DNA of 18,106 bases, taken from Chalciporus piperatus (taxonomy: Eukaryota; Basidiomycota; Agaricomycetes; Boletales; Boletaceae). Both the position numbers and the translations under genes were made by a program. A model generated the notes under the pieces. It saw only the letters and a list, made by a program, of their open reading frames with translations. It searched no databases and was not told the DNA's origin. This document shows positions 1 through 18,106 of this stretch, one piece after another. The number at the start of each line of letters is the position of its first letter. The stretch's first letter is position 1. The stretch is taken from contig JBBPTG010000380.1 of assembly GCA_038093975.1 (NCBI GenBank), positions 1 through 18,106 of the forward strand, read 5' to 3'.

Positions 1-998
1 GTCAAGGAACTAGTCGCATCCATCAAATTCAACGACGAGTATTCCTACGAGGACAACAAGGAAACTCATCGTAATCTATACAGTACACGTCCAATCCTTC
101 AAGTCAACTTGCGTCTTCTTGCCGTCTGATTTTTCTTCAGATGAACTCGTATCCCTCGTTCCACCTGATCATTCTGATTCTCTGGGCCAACCTCCCCCAT
201 CGCTCATATTCTACGCCGCACGCCACATCCTTTACCCATCCTTCATCATTGGACAAATCCCCGAATTACTCAACTACCTCTCCACCATCGACATGTATCG
301 CCAGTTCGTGGTAAAGAAGGCTGACGAGGCGCTCTTGTGGCAGGAGTACTATGCTAGCGAGCAGCGTGCGGGTCGCGCAGATGATGTGAGACTATTGACA
401 GAGAAAGAGACGCGCGTGTTACAGGGATACGTGACGAAGAAGGATGACAAACGGAGGGTGTATATCATGCTGATACGAAGCCTCATTCAAGTCGTGAGCA
501 TGATACACCATTACGATGATCTCTTCCACTGACTCTCTGACATCAATCCAGCACCTCCATTATATCTGGACAGCCCCAGAATCGTGTCTGATCGCAAAGC
601 GACTTCATGCGTTCTTCCCTGGATCGTTCGAGGGCATAGACGAGCCCTCGCCATTACAATTCCACGTACATCTGTCTGAGGACGAAAAGGCCCAACTGGG
701 ACAGCTCAAGGAAGAATGTCACGAGTGGATGAATGACGCTGTGGATTGGGCTGGTGTGCGTGAGGAGGAATGTCGGCAGAATGGGTAAACATCTTTCTAT
801 TCAATGTTCTTTCTTCTACGCTGACCAAGATCTAGGCTATCGGAAGAAGACATGGATGCAAGCTACGTAGATGACTTTCGAGAGGCGTTCCCCCCTCTGT
901 TTGAACCGGCCGAGATGGTTGAAGATGTCGAACTTTACATTACATATGTCGAGGGAATGCTACGAAAGCTTCTGGAGTGGTTTGGACCTTCGCCGTAG
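1..998 (+). CDS. Hypothetical fungal protein, 3' part (four exons, 5' end outside window)
   Basis: Partial gene running off the left edge. Exons join(1..70, 141..493, 552..784, 836..998) give an open frame of 272 residues ending at TAG 996-998. All three introns (70, 58 and 51 bases) start GT and end AG, and the phases (1, 0, 2) agree. The product is mainly helical and acidic-polar with no signal peptide or clear membrane span. It has an aromatic stretch early on (residues about 40-75), a central charged helix rich in Lys/Arg/Glu/Asp, and a C-terminal part rich in Glu and Trp with repeated acidic patches. I do not recognise the family and assign no function. It is convergent with VPS39, with about 580 bases between the two stop codons. 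The exon structure is well supported; the true start lies upstream of the window. Confidence 0.72.
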
Positions 999-1576
999 GG
1001 ACAGCCAATCGTACGCGCTCTCAGTGAGGTACCTTGAAGTCCTTGGACTGTCTCTTTGCCTAGGGTTGTTGCGTGATGGGTGATGGGGTTATTGGTGAGT
1101 TGTTGCAACATCGGAAATATGATATAACAGTTGCAACGGTCCCCAGTCAAACAAAGTGGATCTACCCGTCGCCGGATCGAACACAATAGGATAAGCGAAC
1201 GCTCTACGCTCTTCTCTCTCTCTCGTAAGAAGGCAGATTACTTAGAGAGCTCCGAATCGTGTGGAAGGTGGGTACTTAGAACTGATCTGCATCGTAGTCG
1301 GAGTCGTGGCACAAGCAAGTTCTTTCGAGCTGGTGTCATCCGTCGTATTCGGCTCACCTGCATGCACGGCAGTAATAAGTTTTGAATCCATCTATCTGCC
1401 GGTGATGATCTTGGATAAGGCCAGTGACCCAATTTCGCACATACCTGGATTATGCACTCGAGGGACAATTTTTACGAACGAATCGATTGGCAACGCAACA
1501 GACACGTAAGCAGTCGATACAACAGGCCTCATCTACTTACCAGCGCTGGCTATCCCACGACCACATCCTCAACACC
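999..1576. other. Convergent intergenic spacer (3' UTRs)
   Basis: The spacer lies between the stop codons of the unknown gene (+) and VPS39 (-). Several short open frames cross it on both strands, but none has recognisable content, splice support or a good start context. I see no tRNA-like fold and no repeat. On the minus strand a strong donor-like GTAAGT lies near 1540, downstream of the VPS39 stop, so an intron in the VPS39 3' UTR is possible. Otherwise it is treated as non-coding. Confidence 0.5.
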
Positions 1577-4500
1577 TCAACTCTGCTGTACAGCGAGGCG
1601 TCTGCTGGAAAACGCTTCCCGGCACTGATAATGCGTGACTTCGCCACTAGAAACATCACCAACGCAGCCCGTTAGCCTTTTGCATCCACAAAGAACGATA
1701 AAGCAGACGTCACGCACCGAGGAGCATGTACCGCAATGACACTATTCCCAAGACGTTTGTGACACTGAGGACATCTACGATAGCCCCCTCAGTTTTTCCA
1801 ACACGATGAAAGATACCAGGGAAAACATACATCCGACTGTCAGTCACCTTGACCCGCCTCGACTCGAGTACCATCAACCTCCTCTCCACCTCTTCTTTCC
1901 TCGCCGAGCTTACCTCCCTCACGACACTGCTATCAAATACGGGTGCTCTCAAGGACGGTATCAAGAACGGCTTCACATCTTGAGCGCTCACGAGAGGTGG
2001 GAGTAATTGCAGCGTCTCGATTGGATCGAGGCGAGCACTGTGTCGTGCGATGAGCGAGAGTGCGGGGAATAAAAGGTTCGGAGGGTTTGGGATGGTAGGT
2101 CGGAGGTAGAGTTTGAGAAGAGTGAGGAAGAAGGGCGAAGGGGTTGGCGTAGGGGAGGAAATCCGTTTGCAATGTCTGGAAATGTAAGGTTAATATTGCA
2201 GAATCCCGGGTCGAAGGACGGCTGGGATAGGAGGACTCACTCTTCCGCCTTGGCGTAGTCTCCAAGTTTGTATACATAAAGCTCAAGAGCATGTTCATGT
2301 CTATCCATGCGACCCAAGAGGATAGCACGCGCTTCATAAAGATCTACATAGAGGAGCTCAACTCCTCGACAGAGGTCACAAGAAATCTCACTCACCATCT
2401 GAGAGCAATCCGTACAATCGATCGGACCGGTAATGTTCGGTCGTGTCGATGAACTTGAGAAGCTTCGAATACACCTCTGCACGCTTGCCTGCTCCAATCA
2501 ACGAAGGAAGAAAAACATCAGTAAACGGATTCACGCGCATATAAGGGAAGGGACAGGAAAGGACGCACCCTCGTCCCCTCTCTTCTTAGCGGCCATCGTA
2601 ATTCCAAGATAGAGCTCTGCCAGTCGATCATGGAATCCCGCACTCTTCTCCTCTTTCTCCTGGATGAGATACTCGAGGTACCGGGCTGCAACCTGGGGGT
2701 CAAATCTTTCGAGGTAATCCGTAACAGCGCCCCGAGGAAGCTCTACATCATCGGATGTGAAGATCTGGGTGACGAGGTGCATTATCATTCATTAGTGAGA
2801 AGACTTCAAAGGCAGAAAAGCAGACCTCAAAGGCCATCTCTCGATCCTGTTCGAAAACCCATCTTGCGGACTCAAATATCTGATCCAAGTACTCCGGACC
2901 CAGTTTCCGGAGGTACGAAATTGATGGGCCCAGTTTATCCCTCATGTCTTCTTCTTTCTCGCTTAGCCTGCAAGTAAGGGGTGAGTGGAAACCTTGGGGA
3001 TCCATAAGACTTCAGACGTACTGCGCCAGTAACTTGAGCGCCTTTGCATGCATCTTCCTCCCATTGTACAGGAAGACAAGTTCCGCATGTTTCTAGATGC
3101 GGGGGTTAGTCGCCACTGTTCTCCTCGACGAGTCCCAAAGACAAGCGTCTCCACACTGAATGATATACAATGGCTCACCTCTCTCGCTCTCAATTCCTCT
3201 TCCACTTCCTCAACTTCACACCAATTCGGCAGCCTACAGAGCGGACCCAACATACTCGGTCGTCCAATCAAATAACTCTTAAACAACGCCGTGTCGACGA
3301 TCTGAGCTCTCTTCACGAGTTCGTCTTCCGTGAGATCTGAAAGTGCGACGCCAGACGGGAGAGCGTAGAGAGCGGCGGGTGAAGTAGAAGAGAGCGTTGG
3401 GAAGAGGTGTGACTGAGATGGGGTTATTTGGTGGGAAGAGAGGGCACCGGCAAGCTTCGGTCGCATGGAGGTTAGGTACCGCCATAGAGTCTCCAAGGAA
3501 CGGGTCGAGTCGTCTACAATGAGTACACACGTCAGGATTCCAAACGTACTCAAAGAGATCATTCCAGGCACGAGCAATGGTGAACGCACCGAGGACCTTC
3601 CCTTTCTTCTTCCCGGCCAGCGACGCAACATCGTCTTCCTTGGATACCGCTGCAGGTAATAAAGCTCCAAAACTTGTCTTGGTCCGGGCCCTGACTGAGC
3701 CTGTCGGGGATGGGGACCTCGAGATTGTAACTGCGAGTTTGTCTTTACTGCCCGCTGGACTCTCCTTGCTTTCGCTAGACTCTGTCGACGCGGCATCCTC
3801 CGCCTTCCCCGCGCCTCCGGTCGTATCACTTCCCCTGGTGGATTGCTCCTTCGGTTGTGCGGCTGGTCCACCGAATAATTCTACCCAATCCTCCTGCTTC
3901 ACCGCCAATCGTCCAGCCACCTTGTGAGGATACAGCGCGACGACCTTGGCAGGATTAACATCGAGCTCCAAAAACGTATTGACCGCATTGTCATACTTGC
4001 CCGAACGGAATTGTGATACTGCGTTGAGACCAAGGATAAGATTTCGTCTGGGGCTTGGACTTGGGCCGTAAACATGATCCAATAGGGCTAGGGCTTCAGT
4101 ATAGGAGGCTTGTGAAACTAATTCCTCGATTTGGGCGTCCCATTCTCGCATGGTAAATTTCCAGATGGTGGAGCCCTCCGCAGCGGCGAGCGTTCGATCG
4201 AGAGGGGTAGAGAAGAGGAAGATGCTAGAGGGAGACTTTGAAGTGGCTGGGAAATGGGCAAAGGTGGAATTCGTCGTGAGAAGTCGTAAGGAGACATTCA
4301 CCGGAGATGGATTGGCAGCACTCAGAGTAGAGGTCTGTGTAAAAGGAAAGGCTGCCGTCTGAACGGGATGCATGTTGATAGACGTTATGATCTGAATGAC
4401 GGGTGCTTGGATAAATGATGGTTGTGTCTGCGCTTGACTTATTTGTTGAGACATGGGTGTAGAGCCTGAGGGGACTAGGGAGGTCCCACTACCATTAGAA

Positions 4501-5829
4501 GATTCCCCGCTGACAGGAACTGTGACTGTGCCAGGTGGCAGTATAGAAAATATGTAAGGGTTCGCGTATGCTGCAGGCGTCCACAATGGACTTGAGTCGA
4601 GAATTTAAAATCATGACAGTACGGGAGTCCAGCTCACCAATTTCCTCGGGTTGACTCGGCCAATTTATGACTGACTCTTTCGTCTTCCCATCAACCGAAA
4701 CGACGAAACCCTGATCTAGAAGTATCGAATGTTCGTTGGACCGCACGGCGAATCACGAGATGGACCGCTTCACTTACTGTCCTTTACGATAACAGCCTCC
4801 TCTTCATTAATCCTCGCCAAACCAGGTTTCGCATTCTTGCTTCCCAGCCCGAGAGTCATATAACTTGACAGACCAGAAAAAGTACCCATTCCCAATCCTG
4901 TGGAAGATGATGCAGTGGGGACGGGTGCAGGCGTCGCAATATCTACAGTCGTGCAGTCGTCCAGAGAGAAAATCGCGTGTTCAGTGGAGGAGTATGCAAA
5001 GCACACATGAGAGGGATCCAAGAAAGCTATGGCACGGGGTGAATGAGGGAGTGGTGTTTCCTGTTCACCAAAGATTTCGAGGATAGTAAAAGAAATCGAC
5101 GATATACCACACGCGTTTTGACTTACCTTGACTGGCTGAGCTTCTCCATCTTCCCATGTATATACCACCACTTTCCGACGACAGCCTATCACGAGAGTCG
5201 TCACCATCGTTGGAATTGGTATCGGCTTTGTCTTCACTTCAAACCCGCCGGACCGGGGTGAGGCAGTTGGATCGGTACTCTGACCCCCCGGCGCATCGTG
5301 GACGCTTGAATGAATGGCGAACGATAATGCACCCTTGGCTTTGCTAAGTGGTGTTGGGGGAGAAAAAGAAGGTAGTGGATATAGTGTCGGGATGGTTTCT
5401 GCGAATAACACTATGAGTGAATGTGGGATACCGAACGGGAGTGATGCTCGAACCAGCAAGGACAACCAATGAATTCACATCCTTGATATACCCTAACTGA
5501 TCAATAGCTCTCCTTGATATTCCAACCTTCGTCTCCACAAGTGTAACCGTTGGGTCTTCACCTTCGGCTGAGCAGCCCACGCGACGATGAAGTTAAGTTG
5601 ATGAAGACGCAGAGGTAAGAGCCAGGACACACCAGACTGTTCATGCAAGTCATAAACATGAATACTCCCGTTCGCCGTACCAATGTATAGTCTATCTCCT
5701 GGAAGGGCAGCTGGTAAGGGGGTTGGGTGATCCGGGCTGCTACGAGCAATAATTACCTTGGACGAGCAGCGACTCTGGTCGTTCTTTGAATCCGGTAAGC
5801 ACTGCAGTCGGCGTATTGAACGGCGCCAT
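1577..5829 (-). CDS. VPS39: VPS39/VAM6-like HOPS complex subunit (CNH domain, Vps39 domains 1 and 2)
   Basis: Vacuolar sorting protein 39 tethers late endosomes, vacuoles and autophagosomes as part of HOPS with the Rab7/Ypt7 GTPase. Sixteen exons: complement of 5829-5757, 5698-5633, 5567-5454, 5398-5127, 5060-4778, 4715-4638, 4570-3590, 3513-3179, 3092-3022, 2967-2826, 2764-2569, 2488-2396, 2343-2241, 2175-1831, 1774-1718, 1646-1577. They total 1092 codons plus TGA, with all phases consistent. The citron-homology (CNH) beta-propeller begins at residue 1 (start MAPFNTPTAVLTGF) and contains the motifs RRAIDQLG, VIGCRRKVVVYTW and INWPSQPEEI. Exon 7 carries a Ser/Pro/Gln-rich disordered linker. 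Vps39 domain 1 is near residues 680-757 (ALFKSYL, LGPLCRLPN, EVEEVEEEL). Clathrin-like helices follow (LGPEYLDQIFE, HDRLAELYL, YEARAILLGRM), then Vps39 domain 2 ending in CPQC and HYQC, a possible zinc-binding set. Length fits fungal homologues. The acceptor of exon 4 could instead lie 12 bases upstream. A paralogous Vps3/TRAP1-like identity is less likely. Confidence 0.93.
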
Positions 5830-6406: not shown

Positions 6407-9400
6407 TTATATACCGACATGAATAAACGGAACCCATGAAAAGAAAGACGCGTCAGAGTCACGGAGATGCTGGACAGCATAATGCAACGCTTCTGCAGCT
6501 TCGGTGCTGTCCGGCACTTTGCCATCCCGGAAGAGATGCTCGTACACATCCTTTGTCACTTTCGGTGCGTCATGGTCCATGATTGACCACATCGTTGCAA
6601 CGACACCGCTGTAACCAGCTAGAAGCATTCCTGCCGCGAGATGGACAGATTCTTCTGATAGCTTTTCCTCTCCCTGTGCGGTCTGACAGGCAGAAAGAAA
6701 AGCGAGACCACCTCGAGGGCGTGACAACCGAATGATGTCCGAAAGTTTCAGGCGACGACCATCGGCGAGGCAAAGCCCGCTGTCGAGCGGGTTGACAGGA
6801 TCTTGCACGCCATGACACGCGAAATGGACCCAGTCAGAATTAGACTCCATTTTTGCCAAGACGTCCTCGACCGTCCCGTCAGAGTCCCGAAGAGTTACGA
6901 ATCGAGAATTAGCGGACGAGGTTCTGATGTGATCGATCTCCTGTGGCACGGAGGCTAGCCGAGTCAACCCATCTGTCGGTGGCTGAGGGACGGCAACGAG
7001 GTGAATCTTGGACGAGGCGTTGCTCGTGTCCTTCTGAGGGGGTGGTGCAAGAGCACTGAGAGTTGGTGCATAGGACGATATGACGAAATCAGAAAGCTTG
7101 GTCCCGGGGCTAGTGGAACCATGAAGACCGGCGGCGTGTATGGGTAGGAATGCGAAGGGTCCAGTGGGACACCAAAAGATACGAGTCTTTTTCTCACCAC
7201 CCGACGGGGGAGTCTGAGAACATGCAAATATTAGTCGGAAAAGATCGAGGTTCCGATATTGACGACATACCGAAAAGCCGAGGGCACCAAGAACTGGGTT
7301 TACAACACTCTCCCAAAGGTGTGCGAGAATGAAACGGAACACTTCGTCAGGTGTGTATCCTTCGATTCGTTGGGGCTTAACTTTGACCGCCCTATCACAA
7401 TCCTGCATCAACAACGTATTGAGCAGGTCCTGCGACGCAAGATTCTCTTCGGAGGAAACCAGAGCAGATATATCATCACGTGAGATAATGAGACGACTCT
7501 GCTGGAGCAAATGACGGAGTAGTTTCTGTAGGCCTACCACCATCGGATAACTGATATCAGGAAGCGGGACATGAAGAACATTGCCCAAATCCTGCCTGAC
7601 AATCAATGCATCACATCGTTTGTGACTAGCATTGAGATACACGACGGGACCAGAGTGCGCCGAAGTGGCGAGTTGCTGGATGGTCTTCGGGAGCAAGAAC
7701 CGGTCGAAGCCCGGCAATGACCGTATGTCGGCAAGGAGTTTCTCTCGCGAGATAGCGAGTTCATGGTGTCTCTGGGTTTCCTTCTCGAGTGACAGAGTGG
7801 CAGCCTGAGGGCCTGCGTCACTTGACAGCCGGTGCGATGTGGAATTCTCACGAGAGCTGGCTTGCTCTAGCTCTCGGGAGATATCTCGGAAGTGATCAGC
7901 AAGAGTGGGATACTCGACGCGAAGCTCGTCTACTGGAGTGCGAAGCTGGAGGAATTGACTCCAGACAACCGAACGGCCTTGTTCGAGCCATTCAACAGCC
8001 ATCTCAGGAAAACCAGCTTCAACTGCGGCCGCGGCCGCGCCTCTTGCTACATCAGTAGCAGTGACGAGTAAACGGTGGCGCTCTGCGAGTGGCAGGCCGA
8101 TCCATGCCAAATCTGGAAGAAGGCTCATAGAGGTAGCATATGCATCAAGAAGAGCCTGGGAGTCATCTTGTAAGTGTGCAGACAAAGCCCAGCCGCGAGA
8201 GGCATGGAAGCGGTCAGGAGTGGGACCTGTGGTGGAGCGAGCGGCCAGTGAGAAGTGCAATGTAGCAGCAAGGAGACTGGAATCATCGTTGGAGTGGTTG
8301 AAATGTTCAATGAATAAGTTCCCGAGGCTTCTCAACTGATTTGGCTTGCCAGGATGGCCTTCGGGAGTGAGATGCACTGCCTCCTCGAACATCGAAATGG
8401 ACTTCTTGATGTCTGCGAGGTCGCCAAGCCGCTCAAAGCGACGAAATAACGACCTGCCAAGGTTGTTCAATAGAACTGGCTTGCTGGGATGGCCACCGGG
8501 AGTGAGATGCACTGCCTCCTCGAGCATTGAAGTGGACTTGTTGATGTCTGCGAGGTCACCAAGCTGCTCAAAGCGACGAAGCAACGAGGACCCGAAATTG
8601 GTCAATAGAGCTGGCTTGCTGGGATGGCCATCGGGAGTGAGATGCACTGCCTGCTCTTTCATCGAAATGGACTTGTTGATGTCTGCGAGGTCGCCAAGCC
8701 GCTCAAGGCGACAAGATAACGAGCTCCCGAGGTTGTTCAACCGACTTGGCTTGGCAGGATGGCCTTCGGGAGTGAGATGCACTGCATGCTCTTTCAGCGA
8801 AATGGACTTGTTGATGTCTGCGAGGTCACCAAGCCGCTCAAAGCGACGAAATAACGAGTTCCCGAGGTTGTTCAACCGACGTGGCTTGTCAGGATGACCT
8901 TCGGGAGTGAGATGCACTGCCTGCTCTTTCATCGAAATGGACTTGTTGATGTCTGCGAGGTCGCCAAGCCGCTCAAAGCGACAAGATAACGAGTTCCCGA
9001 GGTTGCTCAACCAACCTGGCTTGTCAGGATCGCCTTCGGGAGTGAGACACACTGCCTCCTCGAACATTGAAATGGACTTGTTGATGTCTGCGAGGTCACC
9101 AAGCTGCTCAAAGCGACGAGATAACGAGCTCCCGAGGTTGCCCAACTGACCTGGCTTGTCAGGATGGCCTTCGGGAGTGAGACACATTGCCTCCTCGAGC
9201 ATTGAAGCGGACTTGCTGATGTCTGCGAGGTCACCAAGCCGCTCAAAGCGACGAAATAACGAGTTCCCGAGGTTGTTCAACCGACGTGGCTTGTCAGGAT
9301 GACCTTCGGGAGTGAGATGCACTGCCTGCTCTTTCATCGAAATGGACTTGTTGATGTCTGCGAGGTCGCCAAGCCGCTCAAAGCGACAAGATAACGAGTT

Positions 9401-11025
9401 CCCGAGGTTGCTCAACCAACCTGGCTTGTCAGGATGGCCTTCGGGAGTGAGACACATTGCCTCCTGGAACATTGAAATGGACTTGTTGATGTCTGCGAGG
9501 TCACCAAGCCGCTCAAAGCGACGAAATAACGAGTTCCCGAGGTTGTTCAACCGACTTGGCTTGGCAGGATGGCCTTCGGGAGTGAGATGCACTGCCTGCT
9601 CTTTCATCGAAATGGACTTGTTGATGTCTGCGAGGTCGCCATGTCGCTCAAACCGACCAGCCAATAACCCTCCGAGGCCACCCAGGATCAGAGGCCGGCG
9701 AGGATCCCGATTTGACAGGTGCAGCAGCATAACCCGTTGCCTCCGTATCAGTTCCTCGTCACCAGATTCTCCACCGTCTGGGATCCCAGGCTTTATAGTC
9801 TGAATGGACGAGGGGGCCTCGGCCATCTCCAGTGCAAGGCTCGCTGCCCGGTAAGAGTAGCTCTCTACCGGGGAGAGCTCCAACACCCTGGAGAACAAAT
9901 CCTTGGCATCCGTCCTGTCTGCCTCCTGGCCTCGTTGCTGGAAACGGGCCAGAAGAGCGAAACCGAGATCGAGCGCTGTCGCGCAGTGATCCGAGTGACC
10001 CCTGGGGCGAAGCTGGAGTGCTTCCTGATACAACGTGATTGGAACATCTAGGTCGAGATAATTATTGTTGGCTCGACAGCGTATGAACCTCGCAGTGGCC
10101 AAGTTATATACTACATCAGAACGATCGGGGTGGTCGGGGGGACAGATCTCTCGGACCCGCTCGAAACGCGCGATAGCTTCGTCGAGATCCCTTTGGTCCT
10201 GGTGCCAGCGATAACGTAGGAGAGCGCGATGTCCGGCATCCGTGATCTCTCCCAGCTGGTTCATCGCGTCTGACTCTGGTGGCTATTATAATCGGGTGAG
10301 AACTCATCAACGAGATCAATGGGTCACTCACTTCAAGTCTCGATATGGATTCATTTAAATCGTACATTCGTCGTTCGGTTACGATCTTGAGTGACGAACA
10401 TGATGGGAAAACTTCGTTATCCTCCGGAACCGGAAACCTGATTGCTGCGACAGGATGTCAAGGTGGTAGGTATGACGAGCCGAGCGTTACTCACGCCAGA
10501 CCCGTTCGTTGCGATCGAGCACCTCTCCAACAGTAGTGTTGAATTGACAAAGTAATTCTCCATTTCCGAGCATTGAGCCAAGTTCAAAGGATGCGTAGAC
10601 CCTGAACGAAATGACAGATGATTCTTCCGACGGGCTTGGACCTTGGTCAGTCAAAGTAGTACAAACGGACAGATAGCGACTCACAGGACGATCTCTTCGT
10701 CCCATTCCACGATGTCCTCGGCTACCAAGACGGGTTTATTTGAGGTTTTCATCGTCTTCTCACCAATTTCTACAGCCATATAGAAACCTGCTGGAATGCG
10801 ACGGAGGCCAGCGACAACATCTGTCGCGCGGATTTCTACGCAGGGGTGTCAACGATATGCTTAGTTTGGCGTACACTACAACGTACGTGTTATTAGGGCA
10901 CATTCGCGTTTGTTTTTGTCAGATATGTTTGGTTCCGAGTCGTCTGATCCCCTTCTCTCCTGAGGACGTCGTTCAAGTTGTTGCGGGGCACGAGGTGGGG
11001 TTGAAACCGGAGAGTCTTTATCCAT
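6407..11025 (-). CDS. TPR-repeat CHAT-domain protein with C2-like N-terminus (putative caspase-like protease)
   Basis: Six exons: complement of 11025-10887, 10835-10685, 10634-10495, 10444-10332, 10282-7271, 7213-6407; 1453 codons plus TAA, phases consistent. Order: a charged, Pro/Gln/Arg-rich tail (residues 1-46); a C2-like beta domain (about 47-165, with IPAGFYMAVEIGEK and VYASFELGSMLGNGE); irregular TPRs (about 188-383); ten 45-residue TPR units (384-833); further TPR-like helices; and a CHAT domain (about 1040-1453). CHAT (caspase HetF associated with TPRs) is a clan CD protease fold. The catalytic His is in HFACHG (H1319) and the Cys in LSACQTA (C1361); both are present, so activity is plausible. 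Such proteins are numerous in agaricomycetes; their substrates are not known to me. The N-terminal ATG at 11025 lies in a good context (GTCCATGG), and exon 1 is the least certain exon. The ends GTP/ATP-free: no NTPase domain is visible. Immune or cell-death roles are inference from bacterial CHAT proteases. Confidence 0.88.
7214..7270 (-). other. 57-base phase-0 intron in the CHAT coding region, readable in frame
   Basis: The intron starts GTATGTCG and ends TTCTCAG, with a branch-like GACTAAT before the acceptor. Removing it joins LGFS to TPPSGGEKK, which fits the CHAT family. Its length is a multiple of three and it has no stop codon, so the unspliced message would stay open and add 19 residues near the start of the CHAT core. 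Splicing is the better model, because the inserted stretch has no counterpart in the family as I know it. Confidence 0.75.
8327..9676 (-). repeat. Ten tandem 135-bp repeats encoding 45-residue TPR units
   Basis: Inside the TPR-CHAT gene ten units of exactly 135 bases follow each other without gaps. Each encodes one 45-residue TPR-type helix pair around the core RRFERLGDLADINKSIS and LTPEGHPDKP. Units 3 and 6 are identical in protein. At DNA level positions 8812-9030 and 9217-9435 match over all 219 bases by eye, an offset of 405 bases or three units, so the array also has a three-unit higher-order period. Variation is concentrated at a few positions: the residues after S-I-S (KEQ, FEE, FQE, LEE), the CL/HL pair, and the three to five residues after KP (GWLSN, RRLNN, SRLNN, GQLGN). 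The outer units (1, 9, 10) diverge more, as expected for an array renewed by unequal exchange. Confidence 0.95.
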
Positions 11026-11852
11026 GGACGTCAAGCAGTAGGGAAGGAAAGAGCACGGGAAGTCTGGTCCGGTTCACGAGTGGTGAAGGTATGAGAGACG
11101 GCATTGTACACGCGGCCACACTTGGAGTGACCTTCACAGGATGACCCAGCTACTACACAGCCCGCTCACTGTGCTGTACTAGCCTGTGTAGGCCAAAGGT
11201 GAGTTATTGGAAGAAAGAGTTTCGTGGTTGCCGTGCCCATGCAAAGTTAATGGACGATCCAGCAACACACTCGACGAGCCATGAGCTGGCGCATTTGTCA
11301 AAGGAGGATCGGCTCGTCGTTGCTCAACCTTGTGAAAGTTGGACATGTCAATCGTGAATATTTGAATCGTGATGATGCTGTATCGTGATGCGGCCCGGGG
11401 AAGTTCAAGTTGCCAGCATGTGATTCTATCATAGCAATAGCACTGCGGCTGCTCCCGGCGACTCCGAGTCGCTATCTCGATCGAATAGCCTGACCTCAAC
11501 CTCATTTTCTTGAATACTACCATCATGTCCAGCCTACCCGCCATCTTCTACGATCCCGAGGACTCCCAACTGGCGGGAGATGCGAAGAAGGAAGTTCCAA
11601 AGCCCCAGGATTACTCCTACACTGTGACAGAACGGACATCATTCTGTACAATACTTGTCCATTCATGCGACTATACCTACTGAAGCTGAAGCCGTTAACG
11701 AAACGAGGTATAGTAAGGGGTTTGCCCACAAGTGCATGGGATGATCGTAATTTCGTAGTTCATCAATGAGCTCCAACGAGCTCCAGATCAGTACTAACAC
11801 TGCCAGCAACTCTGATCTACAAAGCAAGCTATACGGCAGACGACGCGTTCAG
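11026..11852. promoter_or_regulatory. TPR-CHAT upstream region and glutaminase 3' flank
   Basis: About 830 bases lie between the CHAT start codon and the end of the glutaminase remnant. This should contain the CHAT promoter and the glutaminase 3' UTR. An 8-base inverted repeat, CTACACAG (11153-11160) and CTGTGTAG (11184-11191), lies about 130 bases upstream of the CHAT ATG with a 23-base spacer; it may be chance. The stretch 11480-11524 is pyrimidine-rich on the plus strand, like a fungal core promoter, and precedes the orphan frame at 11525. An alternative last glutaminase exon could reach to about 11763. Confidence 0.45.
11525..11683 (+). CDS. Small orphan reading frame, possible first exon or relic
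   Basis: A 52-codon frame starts MSSLPAIFYDPEDS at an ATG in good context (ACCATCATGTCC) and ends with TGA 11681-11683. It follows a CT-rich stretch ending in TTGAATACTACCATC, which resembles a fungal 5' leader. The first 37 or so residues have a plausible protein composition (acidic, then Lys/Pro-rich), while the last 15 look like intron or random sequence, so it may be the first exon of a gene whose remainder is gone or unrecognised. It would be antisense to the glutaminase 3' flank. I recognise no family. It could be meaningless. Confidence 0.22.
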   Translation: MSSLPAIFYDPEDSQLAGDAKKEVPKPQDYSYTVTERTSFCTILVHSCDYTY

Positions 11853-14590
11853 TCATAGTTCCTCCGAGTCCCCTGGGACAGACAAACTCACCAAAGCAAG
11901 ATGCCCACCGACAACAGGACGTGCTCTGAACCCTTTCGATACTCCGCTTAGAGTATCATACCAATCGCTCAGAGGCATATTGTTGGACCCATCTGCGGCA
12001 AAATTGTATACCGCATCGATGAGCATATCCCTCGTCGCGTTATTCGTCATAAAGGCAGCAGTCCAAATCTGCCAGTCGGACTTGGTGTACGTATGACTGC
12101 GCAACACATGAGTCAATCAGGTTTTTCGCCGGAAGAACGTAGACTCGACTTACCGAGTGTCGAGAGGAACACCATAGGTATCTGATAATTCACTCAGTAA
12201 ACCAGTTGGTCACTAAAGGAACATATCTTACTATTGACAGTGGCGTACCAGGCGGTCTCTGGAGGCTAATGAGCACTGGAAACAGCTCGGCTCATGATAA
12301 ACTTACGCATTTCATAGACAGACTCAGGGAACACATTCGTGCGCAGGAGCTTGTCGGCGTACAAGTTATACGACAAGCCCCAACTAAACGGATGTCAGTA
12401 CACAAATGCAAGCCAAAACGAATCCCTACATACCTGCTGTCGTTGCCGTACGACAGGTCGAGGTGACGCCCATCGGCCGCAGTAGCAAACTTCAAAATCT
12501 GAGGCACGTAGCTGGCCACGATCGACTGTCAACAGTGGTCATTAGGCATGTACCTGTGTGGCTGGATGAACATACACTATAATTCTGCTGGTTGGCAGTG
12601 TCGCCAAGCATTCCAGAGATCACACTCATAGCTTGGATGCCAATTACACCCTTAATCGCGAGGTTGGTCTGGTTGGCAAGCGCGCCAGCGAAGTCGTCTG
12701 TGCTGATCTGGTCAGCAGGGATGAGGGCCTCGTTAATAAGATGCCCGGTCCATTGGGTGAGTAGGTCAGTCTGCAAAGCATTCAAAAAAAGGAGCCGCCA
12801 GGGTAGATGTCAAAATGACTCACGTAGCCAGTGATGATAGAGGTGTCGCCCGATGCTTGAGTATAGCTCAAAGTCATGATAAGCATGTTGCCGCACTCTG
12901 TATTTCAGTGAGTTGATGAAAATTGACACCTCCGTACACACTTGACCTTCGAGGGGCATGTCCTCTGCGTTACCATCATTGTGGCCGATCGCCTTCGGGT
13001 ATGTAGAACCTGACAGAGATGAAAGCACGCCCGTTGTGTTAGTCAGAAAACTTACCTAGGTCGTGTACGGCGTACGTTTGAGGCCATTGTCCTGTGGCTT
13101 GATACTGGAAAAGACCAAGGATTAGATATTTACCGAGCGCAGGGTTGGTGTAGAGCAAGATGGGCCAGGCTGGCATGATGACATCGACAGTGTTTACATT
13201 CTGATCGACCAACGCGTCTCCAAGTCAGAAAGGTCTCCGCCGCATGTGAACCAAGACATACCCCGTCACTAGAGATCTCTGTAGGTATCAGGTCCGAGTC
13301 ATTCGAAACGTGATCCGGCGGAGCAGTATGAATGAAACACAACATACCCTTCAAGAACATGAGAATATCGCTAGTATTCCACGAGCCATCACTGTTCTGC
13401 GACATCGTGAGTTCCATAGCACCAAATGCCTGCCTGACGGAGAGTTCAATCACGCCAGCATAATTGCTAGAAATGGCAGAGGCATCATTGTGGACTTTAG
13501 TGTCGAACGCCGAGGCCCTTTCTACTGCGTTGGGGAAGGCTTCAATGAATGATTCGATCTACACAGGGATATCAGTGGTCAAAAACACGGATGGTAGCGG
13601 GGTAAGATGATGACTCAACCATTTCCGTGACACCGCCAGGATAGGCACTCCAAGCATAAAGGCTTCTAGCCTGATATGCACCTCCGGCAATGATGTACTC
13701 GACGACAGGATCCCTTACATGACCCACGGTGAACACAACTGGGTCGCTAAGGCTGGAAATCATCCCAAGATCTTGAGCGAAAGCAAAGACTGGCCAATTG
13801 TCACGAATAGCACGGTAGTTGCTATCGAACGTATTCGCGAGGACACCGGTGTTGATAAATTGTGCGCGCACAACGATATCTTGTCCTGTCTGATAGGTAG
13901 TCGACATTCCATCCTGCGGCGAATGATCAGATTTCATGGTTTTAGACAACGTATGATCCCATACATTTGTCGTGGAGTAGTGGACACTTCCCTCTGGACG
14001 TGCCAGTCGTGGAAGAGTGAGTTCGGCAAAGGACAAGCAAGGACGCCGGACGTACGCAGAATGAAGTCATTGTATTCAGTATATTCTTCCTGTGTCTCGA
14101 GCATAACCTCGTGGGTGAATACCGGTCCAGTTGTCGTACTGTTCCATGTGACATTTCGCGTGTTATCGCTCGCACAAGCCCACTCGGCACTGACGTCGGT
14201 GTAGATGCTAACTGAATGTGGATTGCCATCCGTGGAAGCAGCTTGCACAGAGAGGTAGGAGAATGGAGTGGATTGCTTCACGAGGTCCGAGGGCTGAGGT
14301 CGAGAGCATGGTCGTAGCCTTGAAATGTGTAGGGGGGGCAGAGACGTACCTCAACGGGACTGAGGAAGGTAACGTTAAGGCTAACCGGTCCAGCACTCAT
14401 GACGAAGTAAGTGGAAGTAGCAGTGAACTAAAATCATGGACATCAAACATCAAATTCCTGACAAGTACCGAACACCTACCTGCATGCTTTCTTGTACTGC
14501 GAGAGCGGGGGATGTGCCAGCGACACCCGGATTTCCGAGGAATGTGTATGTCGTATTGTCAACCCTGACATACCCAGCCCATCCAAGATT
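11853..14590 (-). pseudogene. Secreted GtaA-type glutaminase gene, 5'-truncated by LINE insertion and probably frameshifted
   Basis: Fungal glutaminase A releases glutamate from glutamine outside the cell (N-terminal DUF5127, central DUF4965, C-terminal DUF1793 regions). About 640 codons remain in exons, complement of: 14590-14480, 14427-14350, 14293-14056, 13993-13965, 13913-13620, 13558-13348, 13278-13262 (17 bases), 13200-13056, 13009-12947, 12897-12824, 12770-12576, 12525-12434, 12383-12307, 12212-12154, 12096-11853. Family marks: GWAGYVRVDN, QTGQDIVVRAQF, DNWPVFAFAQDLG, VGHVRDP, RQAFGAMELT, GHNDGN, STDDFAGALANQTNLAIKG, YGVPLDTR and TKSDWQIWTAA. The signal peptide and first roughly 60-90 residues are missing because coding sequence begins right at the LINE poly(A) tail. 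Exon 12212-12154 holds TNWF, then a stop and frame change before TYGVPLDTR. Use of an acceptor at 12182 would bypass this with loss of about a dozen residues. The 3' end may instead be spliced to about 11763. Confidence 0.87.
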
Positions 14591-14609: not shown

Positions 14610-14770
14610 GGACAAGTGTTTTTATCATGTAGCAACTGACAAGTCTAGTCCTACATAATACACTAAGGCGGGAGTCAAAGACACCCGGTCCGAGGGAAAA
14701 TGCTCTTACGCACGCCCCGCATTTGCGGGGGGTGTGGGGCTCCGTAAACTACCCGGTGTCCCCGGTATCA
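14610..14770 (-). other. Structured LINE 3' UTR (nested hairpins)
   Basis: Between the stop codon and the poly(A) tail several inverted repeats nest. Outer arms GACACCCGGT (14680-14689) and ACCCGGTGTC (14751-14760) pair at 9 of 10 positions. Inside them TTACG (14706-14710) pairs with CGTAA (14743-14747), and the core CCCCGC-ATTT-GCGGGG (14715-14730) is a perfect 6-base stem with a four-base loop. A further pair, GGTATCA (14764-14770) and TGATACC (14791-14797), spans the stop codon. Many LINE reverse transcriptases recognise such a 3' structure in their own RNA; that role here is inferred. Confidence 0.65.
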
Positions 14771-17700
14771 GCAGGGGGGCCTAGGCAGGTTGATACCCAC
14801 TAAAACCTCAAGGTCGACCACCCAATCAGGGGGTAGGGGGTTTGGTTGCTGGACAGCTGCTGTCCAGGTGTGGGATACTTTTGATGTTCGTTTGGGGTCG
14901 CGTTTGGATTTGGCTGTCCGTCTGTCTATGTCTAGTCTTGCTAGTATTTTGTTTGTCCATCGCGTTTTGATTGCTTCGGCTGTGTGTTGTTTGCCGCTGA
15001 TTACTCGTTCGCATCTGATTGCCCAGATTAGGTGTGCAGATTCTGATATCAGTATTCTTTTCAGTCTCGCTTCTCCTCTTTCGTTTGCTGTGGGTTGGCT
15101 GTTTTCTCTTTGCTGTGGTGTTATGTTTCCGCATCCCAAGATCTGTCCGATCGAAGGTGGGAGCCAGTTTTGGTCAGCGTTGGGCCACAAACCTCGTGTT
15201 AGATTCCAGATCGTTTCTCGCTCTGGTGCTCTGCATTCGGTTAGTATGTGTTCTAGTGATTCTATGTCGTCGTTGCAGTGTGAGCATTTTGCTCTGATTT
15301 CGTAGTTTGGGATGTTTGACCAGAATCCTCCGACTCTCAGGGATCCGTTCATTGCTTTGTATAGGAAACTCTGGACCTGGCGTCTTATGTCCGCGTGTCT
15401 GAGATTTTTCCAGATCGACGCATCGGTTTCGAGGTTTCCGGTGAGATCTTGTATACCGTAGCGGGTAATATCAAGGTTCATCCAGGTTGTCCGTGTGTAA
15501 GGTGTTTTCTTCTTTTTGGTTAGTGCTTCGTACGCTGACTTCTGGGATAGCGTCTTTAGCTTCATTCCTTGGGTTTGGAAATTTTTGGGGACCGTTAGGT
15601 CTATGTTATCATGTTCTTCTTTTTTCGTTCCTTCGTTTGCTAGTTTGTCTGCTTGTTCGTTTCCTTCCTCTCCTGTGTGTCCTTTTACCCATTTGAAATG
15701 TGTTGGGGCCGCTCTACGGCGTAGGTGGTAAGCTGCTGATTGGAACCATTCTTTGTTGCTAATTCCTATCCATCCTCTTTCTTCCCATTCTCCTAGGTGT
15801 TTCGTCAGGCCATCCATGGCGTATCTTGAGTCGGTTATTATGGTCAGTGGTGCCGTTGGTTCTACTATTTGTAGTGTTTTGACTATTGCAGCAATTTCCC
15901 CTGTTTGGTTTGACTGATCAGGTCCGGGGACTTTCATTGCGCAGTTCATTGGATGGTTTTCTCCGATCCATATTCCAGCGCCGCAGGTTGCGTCTAGTTT
16001 GCCATTTTTGGTGCATGATCCGTCTGTGTATACTATTAGTGGTTCCACTGCCTGCCCTTGTTCTGGGCGGGGGTTTTGCATCCGGTATGCTGGTTCCAGC
16101 ACTTCGCTCGTTCCGTCTGTGAGGACTCTGAAACATTCATCTAGCGTTCCACGGGCCGTTATCGTTGGGTCGAAGACGATCTCATCTCCTTTGTCTATTC
16201 GTGCACTCTGGTTTTTCTCTTTTCGTCGGTGGGTAAGTGTCAGATTGTCTTTATTGGGGTGTTCATATGGGTCGTATAATGTGTCTAGGTTCCCGACAAT
16301 GTTCTTTGCCATGGATGCGCATTTATGGGGGTTTGAGCAGCCCGCTCGGCGGTCTTTACGACATTGTTTGCATTCGCAGTGCGTGCTTGGGTAGTGTTTC
16401 GAGCTAATTCGTGTCAGTCTCTTGCTTATCTTCACTAGGTCTTTTATGTTGGCTGCGTTATGTTTGTTTTTCAGGCAGGCGTTCTTTCCTTTGTGGTATT
16501 GGTTGGGCGGGACCCCTATGTGGTACCACGCTGGGAGTTGTCGTTTTAGTAGCTTTGATATTTTCCGGGGTGCGAAGGTGAGTTTGTGTTTCTTCGCAGC
16601 TTGCAGGAGTGATATTACCGGTCTTGGTATTCGTTTTCCGGATCTTGGTTGTCGACCTGACGGGCGGGTCGTTGTCAGGAAGGTGTTTATGTCTTTTAGG
16701 TTTTGTATGCCGTTTTTGTTCACATTGTTTATTATAGCGTCTGTGACGAAAGCCCATGTAGGGCGCTGTGCTGATAGGTCTAGGTATGTTTTCAGCCATG
16801 TGAGTTCTATCGCTTCGTTTCTGGCGTCGATGTTTAGTAGGTTTAACCCTCCTAGGTTCCTTGTTTTCATCAGTTGGGTTAGGCTCATTCCTGGGGGTGT
16901 TCGGCCGCCGTCCCACAGGAAGTTTTGGATTGTGTTTTGCAGAGATTTCGTCACAGTTTGTGGCATTCCTTGGGCTTTCGTTAGGAATTGAGTCGTTCCG
17001 CCTACTACCATTTGGACTATTAAGCGTTTTGCGTCTAGTGTGGGGCGTGTCCCTGCCCATCTATCCAGTGCGTTCTTTATTTTGTCAATTACTGCGCTCC
17101 AGGGTTGTGCTTGGTCTATATCGTTCCCGATCCAAGCTCCTAGAATGCGCGTCGGGTTTCCGCTTGTCGCGATCTTTATTCCTTGTGCCAATGCTTGGTC
17201 GTTGGGGTGGAGTTTCCTTGTATTTATTATCCTTTCTCTGTGTGTCTTTGTCCCGATCGGTATGATCTCCGTTTTTTCTAGGTTGAACTTGGCTCCTGAT
17301 GCTTTGCACCACGTTCGTAGGATGCTTTCCAGAGTTTCATACTTATCTGTTTCCGATAGGTATACGGTTGTGTCGTCGGCGTACAAGTTTACGATCACTC
17401 TAGTGTTGGCGCCCGGTATGTTGAATCCGGTTAGGTCAGGTGAGTTTCGTATTGTTGCTGCTAGTGGTTCTATCGCGAGGTCAAACAGGAGGCAGGAGAG
17501 AGGGTCTCCTTGTCGTACTCCTCTTGTTACTTGGTAGGGTTTACTAAGTACCCCGTTTATCATTACCCCAGTGTAGGCGTTTTTGTATAATGCTTCAACG
17601 GTTGTTATGAATATTTGAGGGAGTCGGAAGGCTTTCAGGGTGTCTATAAGGTACTTATGATCTATTTTGTCATATGCCTTTTCTTGGTCTAGTGCTACTA

Positions 17701-18106
17701 TGGCGCCGTTTTCTTCCATGTAGTCGGCGTAGGTACACATTGTTTCTGCTAGGCGTATTGGGTCGAAGATGGATCTAGTTGGCACAAAGCCTGTTTGATC
17801 TGGGTGGAGGAGGTCACAGGCATGTTTCGCTAGTTGTATGGCTAGTGCCTTTGTCATAATTTTGTAATCTGTGTTTAAGAGCGTGATAGGTCTGTAATTC
17901 TCTATTCTCGTTCTATCTTTTTTCTTGTATAGCGGGCACATCCATCCTATTGAGAAATCCGCGGTTGGGTCTGTTCCTTCCGTTTGGATGTTGTTGAACA
18001 CTTGCGTCAGGCAGAGAGTGACGTCAAAGGATGGTTTGTTTACCTTCGCGTTTTTAGTGTGGCGGTCATGTAGCGTTTTCCATAGCTCATATGGTAGGCC
18101 GTCTAG
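14768..18106 (-). CDS. LINE ORF2: reverse transcriptase - RNase H polyprotein, N-terminus outside window
   Basis: The frame is open from the window edge to TAG/stop at 14770-14768, giving 1112 residues; the first visible residues LDGLPYELWK belong to the region before the RT fingers, so the start is upstream. Residues counted from the edge: RT motifs ENYRPITLLN, QTGFVPTRS, motif A LDQEKAYDK (D140), motif B RQGDPLSC and motif C YADD (242-245). The usual catalytic aspartates are all present. A Cys/His cluster HCECKQC...GCSNPHKC lies near 577-600. The RNase H domain follows with TDGSC (D695), GEIAAI (E737), TDSRYAM (D759), KGHTGEEGNEQAD (D820), so the DEDD set is complete. A C-terminal CSHC...H...C finger near 940-965 resembles zf-RVT. 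It copies the element RNA at a nicked chromosomal target. No disabling change is visible. Confidence 0.93.
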   Translation of the reverse strand, partial: LDGLPYELWKTLHDRHTKNAKVNKPSFDVTLCLTQVFNNIQTEGTDPTADFSIGWMCPLYKKKDRTRIENYRPITLLNTDYKIMTKALAIQLAKHACDLLHPDQTGFVPTRSIFDPIRLAETMCTYADYMEENGAIVALDQEKAYDKIDHKYLIDTLKAFRLPQIFITTVEALYKNAYTGVMINGVLSKPYQVTRGVRQGDPLSCLLFDLAIEPLAATIRNSPDLTGFNIPGANTRVIVNLYADDTTVYLSETDKYETLESILRTWCKASGAKFNLEKTEIIPIGTKTHRERIINTRKLHPNDQALAQGIKIATSGNPTRILGAWIGNDIDQAQPWSAVIDKIKNALDRWAGTRPTLDAKRLIVQMVVGGTTQFLTKAQGMPQTVTKSLQNTIQNFLWDGGRTPPGMSLTQLMKTRNLGGLNLLNIDARNEAIELTWLKTYLDLSAQRPTWAFVTDAIINNVNKNGIQNLKDINTFLTTTRPSGRQPRSGKRIPRPVISLLQAAKKHKLTFAPRKISKLLKRQLPAWYHIGVPPNQYHKGKNACLKNKHNAANIKDLVKISKRLTRISSKHYPSTHCECKQCRKDRRAGCSNPHKCASMAKNIVGNLDTLYDPYEHPNKDNLTLTHRRKEKNQSARIDKGDEIVFDPTITARGTLDECFRVLTDGTSEVLEPAYRMQNPRPEQGQAVEPLIVYTDGSCTKNGKLDATCGAGIWIGENHPMNCAMKVPGPDQSNQTGEIAAIVKTLQIVEPTAPLTIITDSRYAMDGLTKHLGEWEERGWIGISNKEWFQSAAYHLRRRAAPTHFKWVKGHTGEEGNEQADKLANEGTKKEEHDNIDLTVPKNFQTQGMKLKTLSQKSAYEALTKKKKTPYTRTTWMNLDITRYGIQDLTGNLETDASIWKNLRHADIRRQVQSFLYKAMNGSLRVGGFWSNIPNYEIRAKCSHCNDDIESLEHILTECRAPERETIWNLTRGLWPNADQNWLPPSIGQILGCGNITPQQRENSQPTANERGEARLKRILISESAHLIWAIRCERVISGKQHTAEAIKTRWTNKILARLDIDRRTAKSKRDPKRTSKVSHTWTAAVQQPNPLPPDWVVDLEVLVGINLPRPPC

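What the first reader, a model, noticed from the sequence alone, without database searches (positions are those of the whole stretch)
8327..9676. Freshly amplified TPR array in a catalytically intact CHAT protease
Ten 135-bp units are almost identical, and one block of 219 bases (8812-9030 versus 9217-9435) is a perfect copy three units away. Synonymous sites have not diverged there, so conversion, unequal crossover or duplication is very recent. Variation is limited to a few residues per unit on what would be one face of the TPR solenoid. High internal repeat identity with selected variable sites is the known pattern of fungal NLR and allorecognition genes (HET/HIC repeats in Podospora). By analogy this TPR-CHAT protein may be a repeat-number-variable sensor with a C-terminal caspase-like effector. 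The sensor role is inference; the repeat structure is seen.
Basis: partly seen in the sequence, partly recalled or inferred. Interest (0 to 1): 0.78.

Follow-up and report, generated by a model that had tools for sequence, protein, structure and literature searches.

The report
Mushroom TPR-CHAT receptor with shuffled repeats
A mushroom-type fungus carries a caspase-like protease joined to a sensor made of nearly identical repeats that are duplicated in blocks and differ mainly where such repeats usually bind a partner, the pattern expected of a self/non-self or pathogen receptor, although its function has not been tested.

Summary
The array is real: ten 45-aa TPR units (window 8360-9709, minus strand) with a 219-bp perfect copy three units away. 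"Almost identical" is too strong: units 2-8 average 90% nt identity, unit 1 only 67-78%. Other members of this genome's family were homogenised independently, and one TPR relative carries a HET (heterokaryon incompatibility) domain instead of CHAT. Variation concentrates at TPR ligand-groove positions: clear across the family (pooled P 6e-9), borderline at this locus alone. CHAT is under purifying selection against the one intact close paralogue (dN/dS 0.13). Unit number could not be compared at this locus, but two near-identical Boletus edulis protein pairs differ by whole units. It has no NOD, so it is not an NLR, though it evolves like one. Best reading: an intracellular non-self or pathogen receptor whose TPR groove gates a CHAT protease. 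Function, trigger and substrate are inferred or unknown. Assembly method unknown; short reads are unreliable for such arrays.

The parts
10887..11025 (-). exon 1 of the TPR-CHAT gene (start ATG at 11025)
   Evidence: spliced model with a single terminal stop; region and ATG conserved in 4 of 4 close paralogues
10685..10835 (-). exon 2, N-terminal domain
10495..10634 (-). exon 3, N-terminal domain
10332..10444 (-). exon 4, end of N-terminal domain
   Evidence: N-terminal 185 aa matched in 62 of 197 fetched homologues; eight strands in the model of homologue P0148
7271..10282 (-). exon 5: divergent pre-array TPRs, the array, post-array helical linker
9575..9709 (-). TPR unit 1 (diverged, 67-78% nt to the others; nearest unit is unit 1 of paralogue C209)
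8360..9574 (-). TPR units 2-10, 135 bp each (unit 2 = 9440-9574 ... unit 10 = 8360-8494)
8812..9030 (-). 219-bp perfect copy, in units 7 and 6
9217..9435 (-). 219-bp perfect copy, in units 4 and 3
7214..7270 (-). 57-bp in-frame intron (GTATGT...CAG) read through by the ORF
   Evidence: 3 of 4 close paralogues have a 61-62 bp gap with a frame change at this point
6407..7213 (-). exon 6: CHAT protease domain and stop
   Evidence: PF12770 E 2.6e-32; Craspase TPR-CHAT chains E 4e-8
6812..6814 (-). catalytic His codon (HFACHG)
   Evidence: sequence; column invariant in 30 of 30 aligned sequences
6686..6688 (-). catalytic Cys codon (LSACQT)
   Evidence: sequence; column invariant in 30 of 30 aligned sequences

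Best explanation
The gene encodes a NOD-less intracellular receptor-protease: an N-terminal beta-sandwich (C2-like by my reading), a TPR superhelix whose inner groove reads a protein or peptide ligand, and a C-terminal caspase/separase-type CHAT protease. New specificities arise because TPR units are duplicated, deleted and shuffled in multi-unit blocks by unequal crossing-over or conversion, while selection keeps the scaffold and favours change at groove positions. Binding of a non-self or pathogen-altered ligand would release the CHAT protease, which cleaves a substrate (a gasdermin-like pore former is the leading candidate) and triggers cell death or rejection. Shown here: gene structure, homogenisation, block duplication, groove-biased variation in the family, purifying selection on CHAT, and a relative with a HET effector. 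Inferred: ligand sensing, protease activation, substrate, cell death.
For: 9 of the 10 units of this gene (2-10) are nearest to another unit of the same gene, while coding regions outside the array differ from the close paralogues at dS 0.18-0.63 and inner-unit dS is 0.061, so the array was homogenised after the paralogues split. Homogenisation recurs: 6 of 26 arrays of 6 or more units in this genome (this one included) and 84 of 197 fetched homologues reach 85% over 100 aa; in 51 of the 63 such proteins of the first list the best lag is not a single unit. A-priori groove columns (TPR positions 2, 5, 9, 12, 13; PMC1261162, passages) have entropy 1.50 against 0.35 elsewhere in units 2-10 (P 0.0002), are more variable in 22 of 25 other arrays, and pooled over the 11 less diverged arrays of 26 have omega 1.28 against 0.64 (P 6e-9). 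CHAT dN/dS is 0.13 against C49a, the intact close paralogue. Near-identical B. edulis proteins differ by whole units: P0181/P0056 are 99.4% identical over 1474 aligned residues with a 135-aa gap (plus one of 27 aa); P0154/P0164 97.6% over 1235 with gaps 180, 45, 45 aa. Relative C243:25823-29797 joins the homologous TPR region to a HET domain in one 1325-codon frame. Model: regular two-helix units, pLDDT mostly 81-96; highest structural Z are Craspase TPR-CHAT 22.9, LGN TPR 19.9, separase 19.7. Literature passages: a CHAT allele at A. fumigatus hetB is implicated in incompatibility (PMC11138114); a TPR-bearing CHAT protease activates a gasdermin in P. anserina (PMC12881547).
Against: No NOD domain. 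No phenotype, ligand or substrate. At this locus nonsynonymous steps show no excess over the whole array (52:21, P 0.72 at kappa 2; units 2-8 27:4, P 0.03-0.09 by kappa), omega for units 2-8 is 1.90 with bootstrap range 0.76-8.6, groove columns in units 2-8 alone are 7:0 (P 0.11), and the one-face helix test gives P 0.09. Taken one array at a time, no other array of the pool has a significant nonsynonymous excess at groove columns (binomial P 0.198 or more in 10 of 10); the pooled result is a contrast between columns. Three of four close paralogues (C209, C49b, C49c) carry stops or frame breaks, compatible with a decaying clade. No strain comparison. Gasdermin neighbours were not searched. Variable groove positions are a general feature of TPRs (PMC1261162).
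Confidence: 0.6

Rival explanations
1. Neutral repeat turnover under relaxed constraint: unequal crossing-over homogenises the array and surface positions drift because nothing depends on them; the gene belongs to a birth-and-death clade on its way to decay.
For: Overall N:S in the array is close to neutral; three of four close paralogues are broken; the omega range for units 2-8 includes 1; no single array in the pool other than this one has a significant nonsynonymous excess at groove columns.
Against: CHAT is strongly constrained against the intact paralogue (dN/dS 0.13); the gene is intact through six exons; N:S differs between groove and other columns in the pooled arrays (P 6e-9); the scaffold residues of the unit are conserved among homologues (consensus).
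Confidence: 0.2
2. A regulatory or scaffold protease (separase-like) of ordinary cell biology whose TPRs bind internal partners; repeat identity is incidental.
For: Fold matches to separase and LGN.
Against: Large, variable, partly broken multigene family (46 CHAT matches in this genome; broken copies) and whole-unit differences between near-identical proteins of two assemblies of one species are not expected of a housekeeping protease; a HET-effector relative exists.
Confidence: 0.12
3. Assembly artefact: unit number or order was collapsed, expanded or made chimeric; the gene is real but the array as printed is not. (Not exclusive of the other readings.)
For: The window begins and ends in repeats (left 1.2 kb 92-95% identical elsewhere; right end a LINE-type ORF); PMC12222747 (abstract and passages) reports that short-read assemblies of such arrays are unreliable and can contain chimeric repeats; the sequencing method here is unknown.
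Against: Units carry private differences outside the 219-bp block; family-wide homogenisation and whole-unit differences are seen independently in proteins from contigs of 0.3-2.7 Mb.
Confidence: 0.15

Closest known systems
Fungal NLRs with high-internal-conservation (HIC) repeats, e.g. Podospora het-d/het-e (PMC12222747) and the TPR NLRs of Dyrka et al. 2014 (PMC4986451)
   Same: Near-identical sensor repeats, concerted evolution, length changes, variation biased to the ligand face; for one TPR locus the positively selected sites lie on the concave side (passages).
   Different: No NOD domain here; effector is a C-terminal CHAT protease; TPR rather than WD40 (het-d/e); recognition role not shown.
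Fungal TPR-CHAT proteases that control gasdermins (Podospora; Clave et al. 2022, not held, known here through passages of PMC10197012 and PMC12881547)
   Same: CHAT protease fused to TPRs.
   Different: No gasdermin partner identified or searched for here; the array here is HIC; found here in large basidiomycete families; extra N-terminal domain.
Aspergillus fumigatus hetB CHAT allele (PMC11138114, passages)
   Same: Large CHAT-domain protein (1327 residues) implicated in heterokaryon incompatibility.
   Different: Idiomorphic two-allele locus in an ascomycete; no HIC array mentioned in the passages read.
Craspase TPR-CHAT (Csx29) of type III-E CRISPR
   Same: TPR plus CHAT with alignable His and Cys; highest structural Z (22.9) and best PDB sequence match (E 4e-8).
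   Different: Bacterial, works with Cas7-11 and RNA; no near-identical repeats mentioned in the abstract starts seen.

Membership tests
fungal NLR | NACHT or NB-ARC nucleotide-binding domain | tested here: not met
   Pfam scans of the ORF (E<=0.001) and of the spliced N-terminal 397 aa (E<=10) list only TPR and CHAT models
fungal HIC repeat protein (criterion of PMC4986451) | >85% identity of repeats over at least 100 aa | tested here: met
   96 of 100 identical at lag 135 aa
fungal HIC repeat receptor | diversifying selection at ligand-face codons | tested here: inconclusive
   this locus 14N:0S at groove columns, P 0.024, but units 2-8 alone P 0.11; pooled arrays differ between groove and other columns, P 6e-9
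fungal HIC repeat receptor | repeat-number polymorphism at this locus among strains | not testable with these tools
   no same-species homologue found, best 53%; seen in Boletus edulis relatives only
TPR-CHAT protease (clan of caspases/separase) | CHAT domain with His and Cys dyad | tested here: met
   activity not tested
TPR-CHAT protease (clan of caspases/separase) | TPR solenoid joined to CHAT through a helical linker, fold as in Craspase | tested here: met
CHAT protease of a gasdermin pair | gasdermin gene next to the protease gene | not tested
het (incompatibility) gene | allelic difference causes rejection on fusion | not testable with these tools
   needs strains and crosses

The most novel reading that the evidence does not exclude
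Mushroom-forming fungi use a NOD-free receptor superfamily in which one TPR sensor chassis, re-coded by block duplication of 45-aa units and tuned at groove residues, is joined to interchangeable death effectors (CHAT protease or HET domain); these genes are candidates for the unidentified somatic-incompatibility or antiviral/antibacterial sensors of basidiomycetes.
Probability: 0.35. Interest if true: 0.82.

Novelty: new variant of a known kind. Interest (0 to 1): 0.6.

Why it matters
Somatic incompatibility in basidiomycetes is poorly understood and its models come from ascomycetes (PMC8229728, start of abstract in the listing). This family offers concrete, countable predictions (unit number, groove codons, CHAT or HET effector) that long-read population data and deletion tests can check, and it suggests that the HIC repeat strategy known from fungal NLRs also works without the NOD module.

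Tried and rejected
Pseudogene: rejected, the spliced model has one terminal stop. ORF of 1285 codons as the protein: rejected, intron 7214-7270 and upstream exons; a first splice attempt failed because of a wrong acceptor for intron 2 and was corrected. Named N-terminal domain: no non-TPR Pfam hit for the window's N-term at E<=10 and no C2 hit in 6 homologues at E<=1; C2-like is my reading of eight strands in a modest model of homologue P0148 (mean pLDDT 65), not searched by fold. Same-species strain comparison: none among the 120 best of 2359 matches. Partner gene: by DNA similarity the window shares with the close paralogues only the 5' exons with some upstream sequence, part of the 3' flank and the start of a neighbouring gene; a wider partner survey was not possible. 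One-face test at this locus alone: not significant, although 24 of 25 other arrays are. A dyad motif count with a faulty pattern gave 0 of 31 loci; corrected: 10 of 32 (31 loci and the window), one of these (L011) with a frame change and HFACHA; 12 more loci, read, keep His and Cys as SACH instead of SACQ; the remaining 10 did not match. Nine of those 10 have no PF12770 match in the genome search, and 8 of the 9 were scanned for other domains (10 ORFs): one HET, the rest TPR models, weak unrelated matches or nothing. The nine B. edulis pairs are reciprocal best by the C-terminal part (9 of 9 differ in unit count, from 29 and 28 usable proteins), but several are probably paralogues; three pairs were aligned and two are clean enough to read as alleles; gene-model errors are possible. 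CHAT dN/dS against C209 (0.25), C49b (0.14) and C49c (0.10) comes from copies with breaks. Nothing is claimed about absence from print beyond titles and abstract starts in the listings, none of which showed a paper on HIC TPR-CHAT proteins of basidiomycetes.
Full report
What is there. The minus strand of 6407-11025 carries one gene. TRF finds a 135-bp array at 8317-9657; in frame it is ten 45-aa TPR units at 8360-9709. The 219-bp perfect copy (8812-9030 and 9217-9435) is exact and not extendable, and 0 of 5000 random placements of the mismatches at that lag give a run as long. The first 358 bp compared at lag 405 hold 11 mismatches, and the next stretch is much denser in them, so the copy is part of a three-unit block duplication or conversion. 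Mean nucleotide identity is 90.4% for units 2-8, 87.7% for 2-10 and 84.7% for all ten; unit 1 is 67-78% to the others. Among units 2-10, 27 of 45 codon columns vary, 20 of them in amino acid.

Gene structure. The ORF of 1285 codons is incomplete. Alignment to four close paralogues in the same genome shows conserved upstream exons, and a six-exon model with five introns of 49-57 bp, chosen at GT and AG, gives 1453 aa with one terminal stop. The last intron (7214-7270) is a multiple of three without a stop, so the ORF reads through it; in 3 of 4 paralogues the same point has a 61-62 bp gap with a frame change. The N-terminal 185 aa recur in 62 of 197 fetched homologues; in a modest model of homologue P0148 they form eight strands, which I read as C2-like, although Pfam gives no C2 match.

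Effector. CHAT is PF12770 at E 2.6e-32. Its exon matches Craspase TPR-CHAT chains at E 4e-8. The His (HFACHG) and Cys (LSACQT) are present, and their columns are invariant in 30 of 30 aligned sequences, the window and 29 homologues. The AlphaFold model of ORF residues 86-1285, intron read-through included (mean pLDDT 74.6, pTM 0.59; blocks over the array mostly 81-96), shows each unit as helix A (columns 4-22) and helix B (columns 25-41). Foldseek lists separase first (E 4e-12) with Craspase, CTPR and OGT TPRs below; the structural second look gives Craspase Csx29 the highest Z (22.9, 496 residues, rmsd 8.2), LGN TPR 19.9 (311 residues, rmsd 2.5), separase 19.7 and SAVED-CHAT 17.2 (171 residues, rmsd 2.4). 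Rows within one Z unit are tied, and TPR solenoids match widely.

Family in the genome. The genome (35.5 Mb, 484 contigs) has 82 matches to the ORF (36 of 135 candidates scored) and 46 CHAT matches (47 candidates scored). I fetched 31 paralogue stretches. Arrays of six or more units were extracted from 26 sequences including this one. In this gene 9 of 10 units are closest to another unit of the same gene; unit 1 is closest to unit 1 of paralogue C209. Other genes show their own block patterns: C35 (L017) a three-unit period, C49a (L010) a four-unit period, C50 (L035) a longer block. By the rule of at least 85% over 100 aa, 6 of 26 arrays qualify. Among homologues from other fungi (Boletus, Mycena, Serendipita and others), 63 of the 120 best hits and 21 of 77 further ones qualify; the first list is ranked by score and so favours repeats.

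Selection. Counting minimum steps over whole units, this array shows no excess of nonsynonymous change (52:21, P 0.72 at kappa 2; units 2-8 27:4, P 0.03-0.09 by kappa); omega for units 2-8 is 1.90 (bootstrap 0.76-8.6). I then fixed the test columns from outside: TPR positions 2, 5, 9, 12 and 13, among the most variable and concave-face positions of TPRs (PMC1261162, passages), placed at unit columns 7, 10, 14, 17, 18 by my own alignment to the recalled TPR consensus. In units 2-10 these hold 14 nonsynonymous and 0 synonymous steps (P 0.024) against 26:10 elsewhere (Fisher P 0.025); entropy is 1.50 against 0.35 (permutation P 0.0002). In units 2-8 alone it is 7:0 (P 0.11). The columns are more variable than the rest in 22 of 25 other arrays. 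Pooled over the 11 of 26 arrays with dS up to about 0.62, this one included, omega is 1.28 against 0.64 (Fisher P 6e-9); none of the other ten has a significant nonsynonymous excess there by itself, and the sequences are related, so the pooled P is optimistic. On a helical wheel the variability of helix A points to one face in 24 of 25 other arrays (mean angle 333 degrees, core 177); this array points the same way (342) but P is 0.09. CHAT dN/dS is 0.13 against the intact paralogue C49a, the linker 0.31, the pre-array part 0.47 and the N-terminal part 0.41.

Length change. No strain of the window's species was found (best identity 53% for the array-free part). In two Boletus edulis assemblies, 9 of 9 reciprocal best pairs differ in counted units. 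Two of the three pairs aligned are near-identical: P0181/P0056 align over 1474 residues at 99.4% with a 135-aa gap (three units) plus a 27-aa gap and small end differences; P0154/P0164 align over 1235 at 97.6% with gaps of 180, 45 and 45 aa. This supports whole-unit turnover in the family, subject to assembly and gene-model error.

Effector exchange. Nine loci have related TPR arrays but no CHAT match; ten ORFs from eight of them were scanned. One (C243:25823-29797, 1325 codons in one frame) has a HET domain at residues 920-1053 (E 1.2e-21) after a TPR region that is 39% identical to this gene over residues 4-638. Its HET part occurs again at 100% at the end of contig C209, and its first 587 residues occur at 97% elsewhere in C209, so that region is duplicated or shared between contigs; the fusion rests on one contig.

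Interpretation. Fungal NLRs show HIC repeats, length change and diversifying sites on the concave TPR face (PMC4986451, passages; PMC12222747, abstract and passages). CHAT proteases act with gasdermins and are implicated in incompatibility in one case (PMC10197012, PMC12881547, PMC11138114, passages). This protein lacks a NOD, so it is not an NLR, but it shows similar evolutionary signs. I therefore favour a groove-reading receptor with a protease effector (0.6), with neutral turnover, a cell-biological protease and assembly error as rivals. Which cue it reads (another individual, a bacterium, a virus) and what it cuts are open.

Noticed in passing
L019 (G000:C243:25823-29797): TPR array homologous to the window's sensor, fused in one 1325-codon frame to a HET domain instead of CHAT; parts occur again at 97-100% identity in contig C209.
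   Followed up: partly
G000 whole genome: 72 matches to the HET family PF06985 (93 candidates scored) and 46 to CHAT (47 scored): a rich incompatibility-type repertoire; many HET matches cover only part of the model.
   Followed up: no
L035 (G000:C50:152800-159000): The most homogeneous array of the set (mean unit identity 0.85, some units identical), with three further units in another reading frame upstream (intron, frame break or assembly error not resolved).
   Followed up: no
window 14768-18106 (-): LINE-type ORF with reverse transcriptase and RNase H, open at the window's right end; the last 110 bases or so before 14700 are 79-97% identical to many places in the genome.
   Followed up: no
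window 1-1207: Repeat 92-95% identical to stretches of contigs C273 and C89, so the window is bounded by repeats on both sides.
   Followed up: no
window 11526-11640 (+): Short divergent coding fragment beside the gene (reads like the start of a MaoC-type dehydratase; name recalled, not searched), with a counterpart beside paralogue C49b: trace of a segmental duplication.
   Followed up: partly
window 2966-5465 (-): Pieces of a Vps39-like gene (PF10366 match in one ORF, 2966-3871); neighbouring ORFs had no Pfam match.
   Followed up: no
window 13575-14281 (-): Two overlapping ORFs with DUF5127 (PF17168) matches to successive parts of the model.
   Followed up: no
L009, L011, L012: Three of four close paralogues (C209, C49b, C49c) have stops or frame changes; C49a (L010) looks intact in the parts aligned.
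   Followed up: partly
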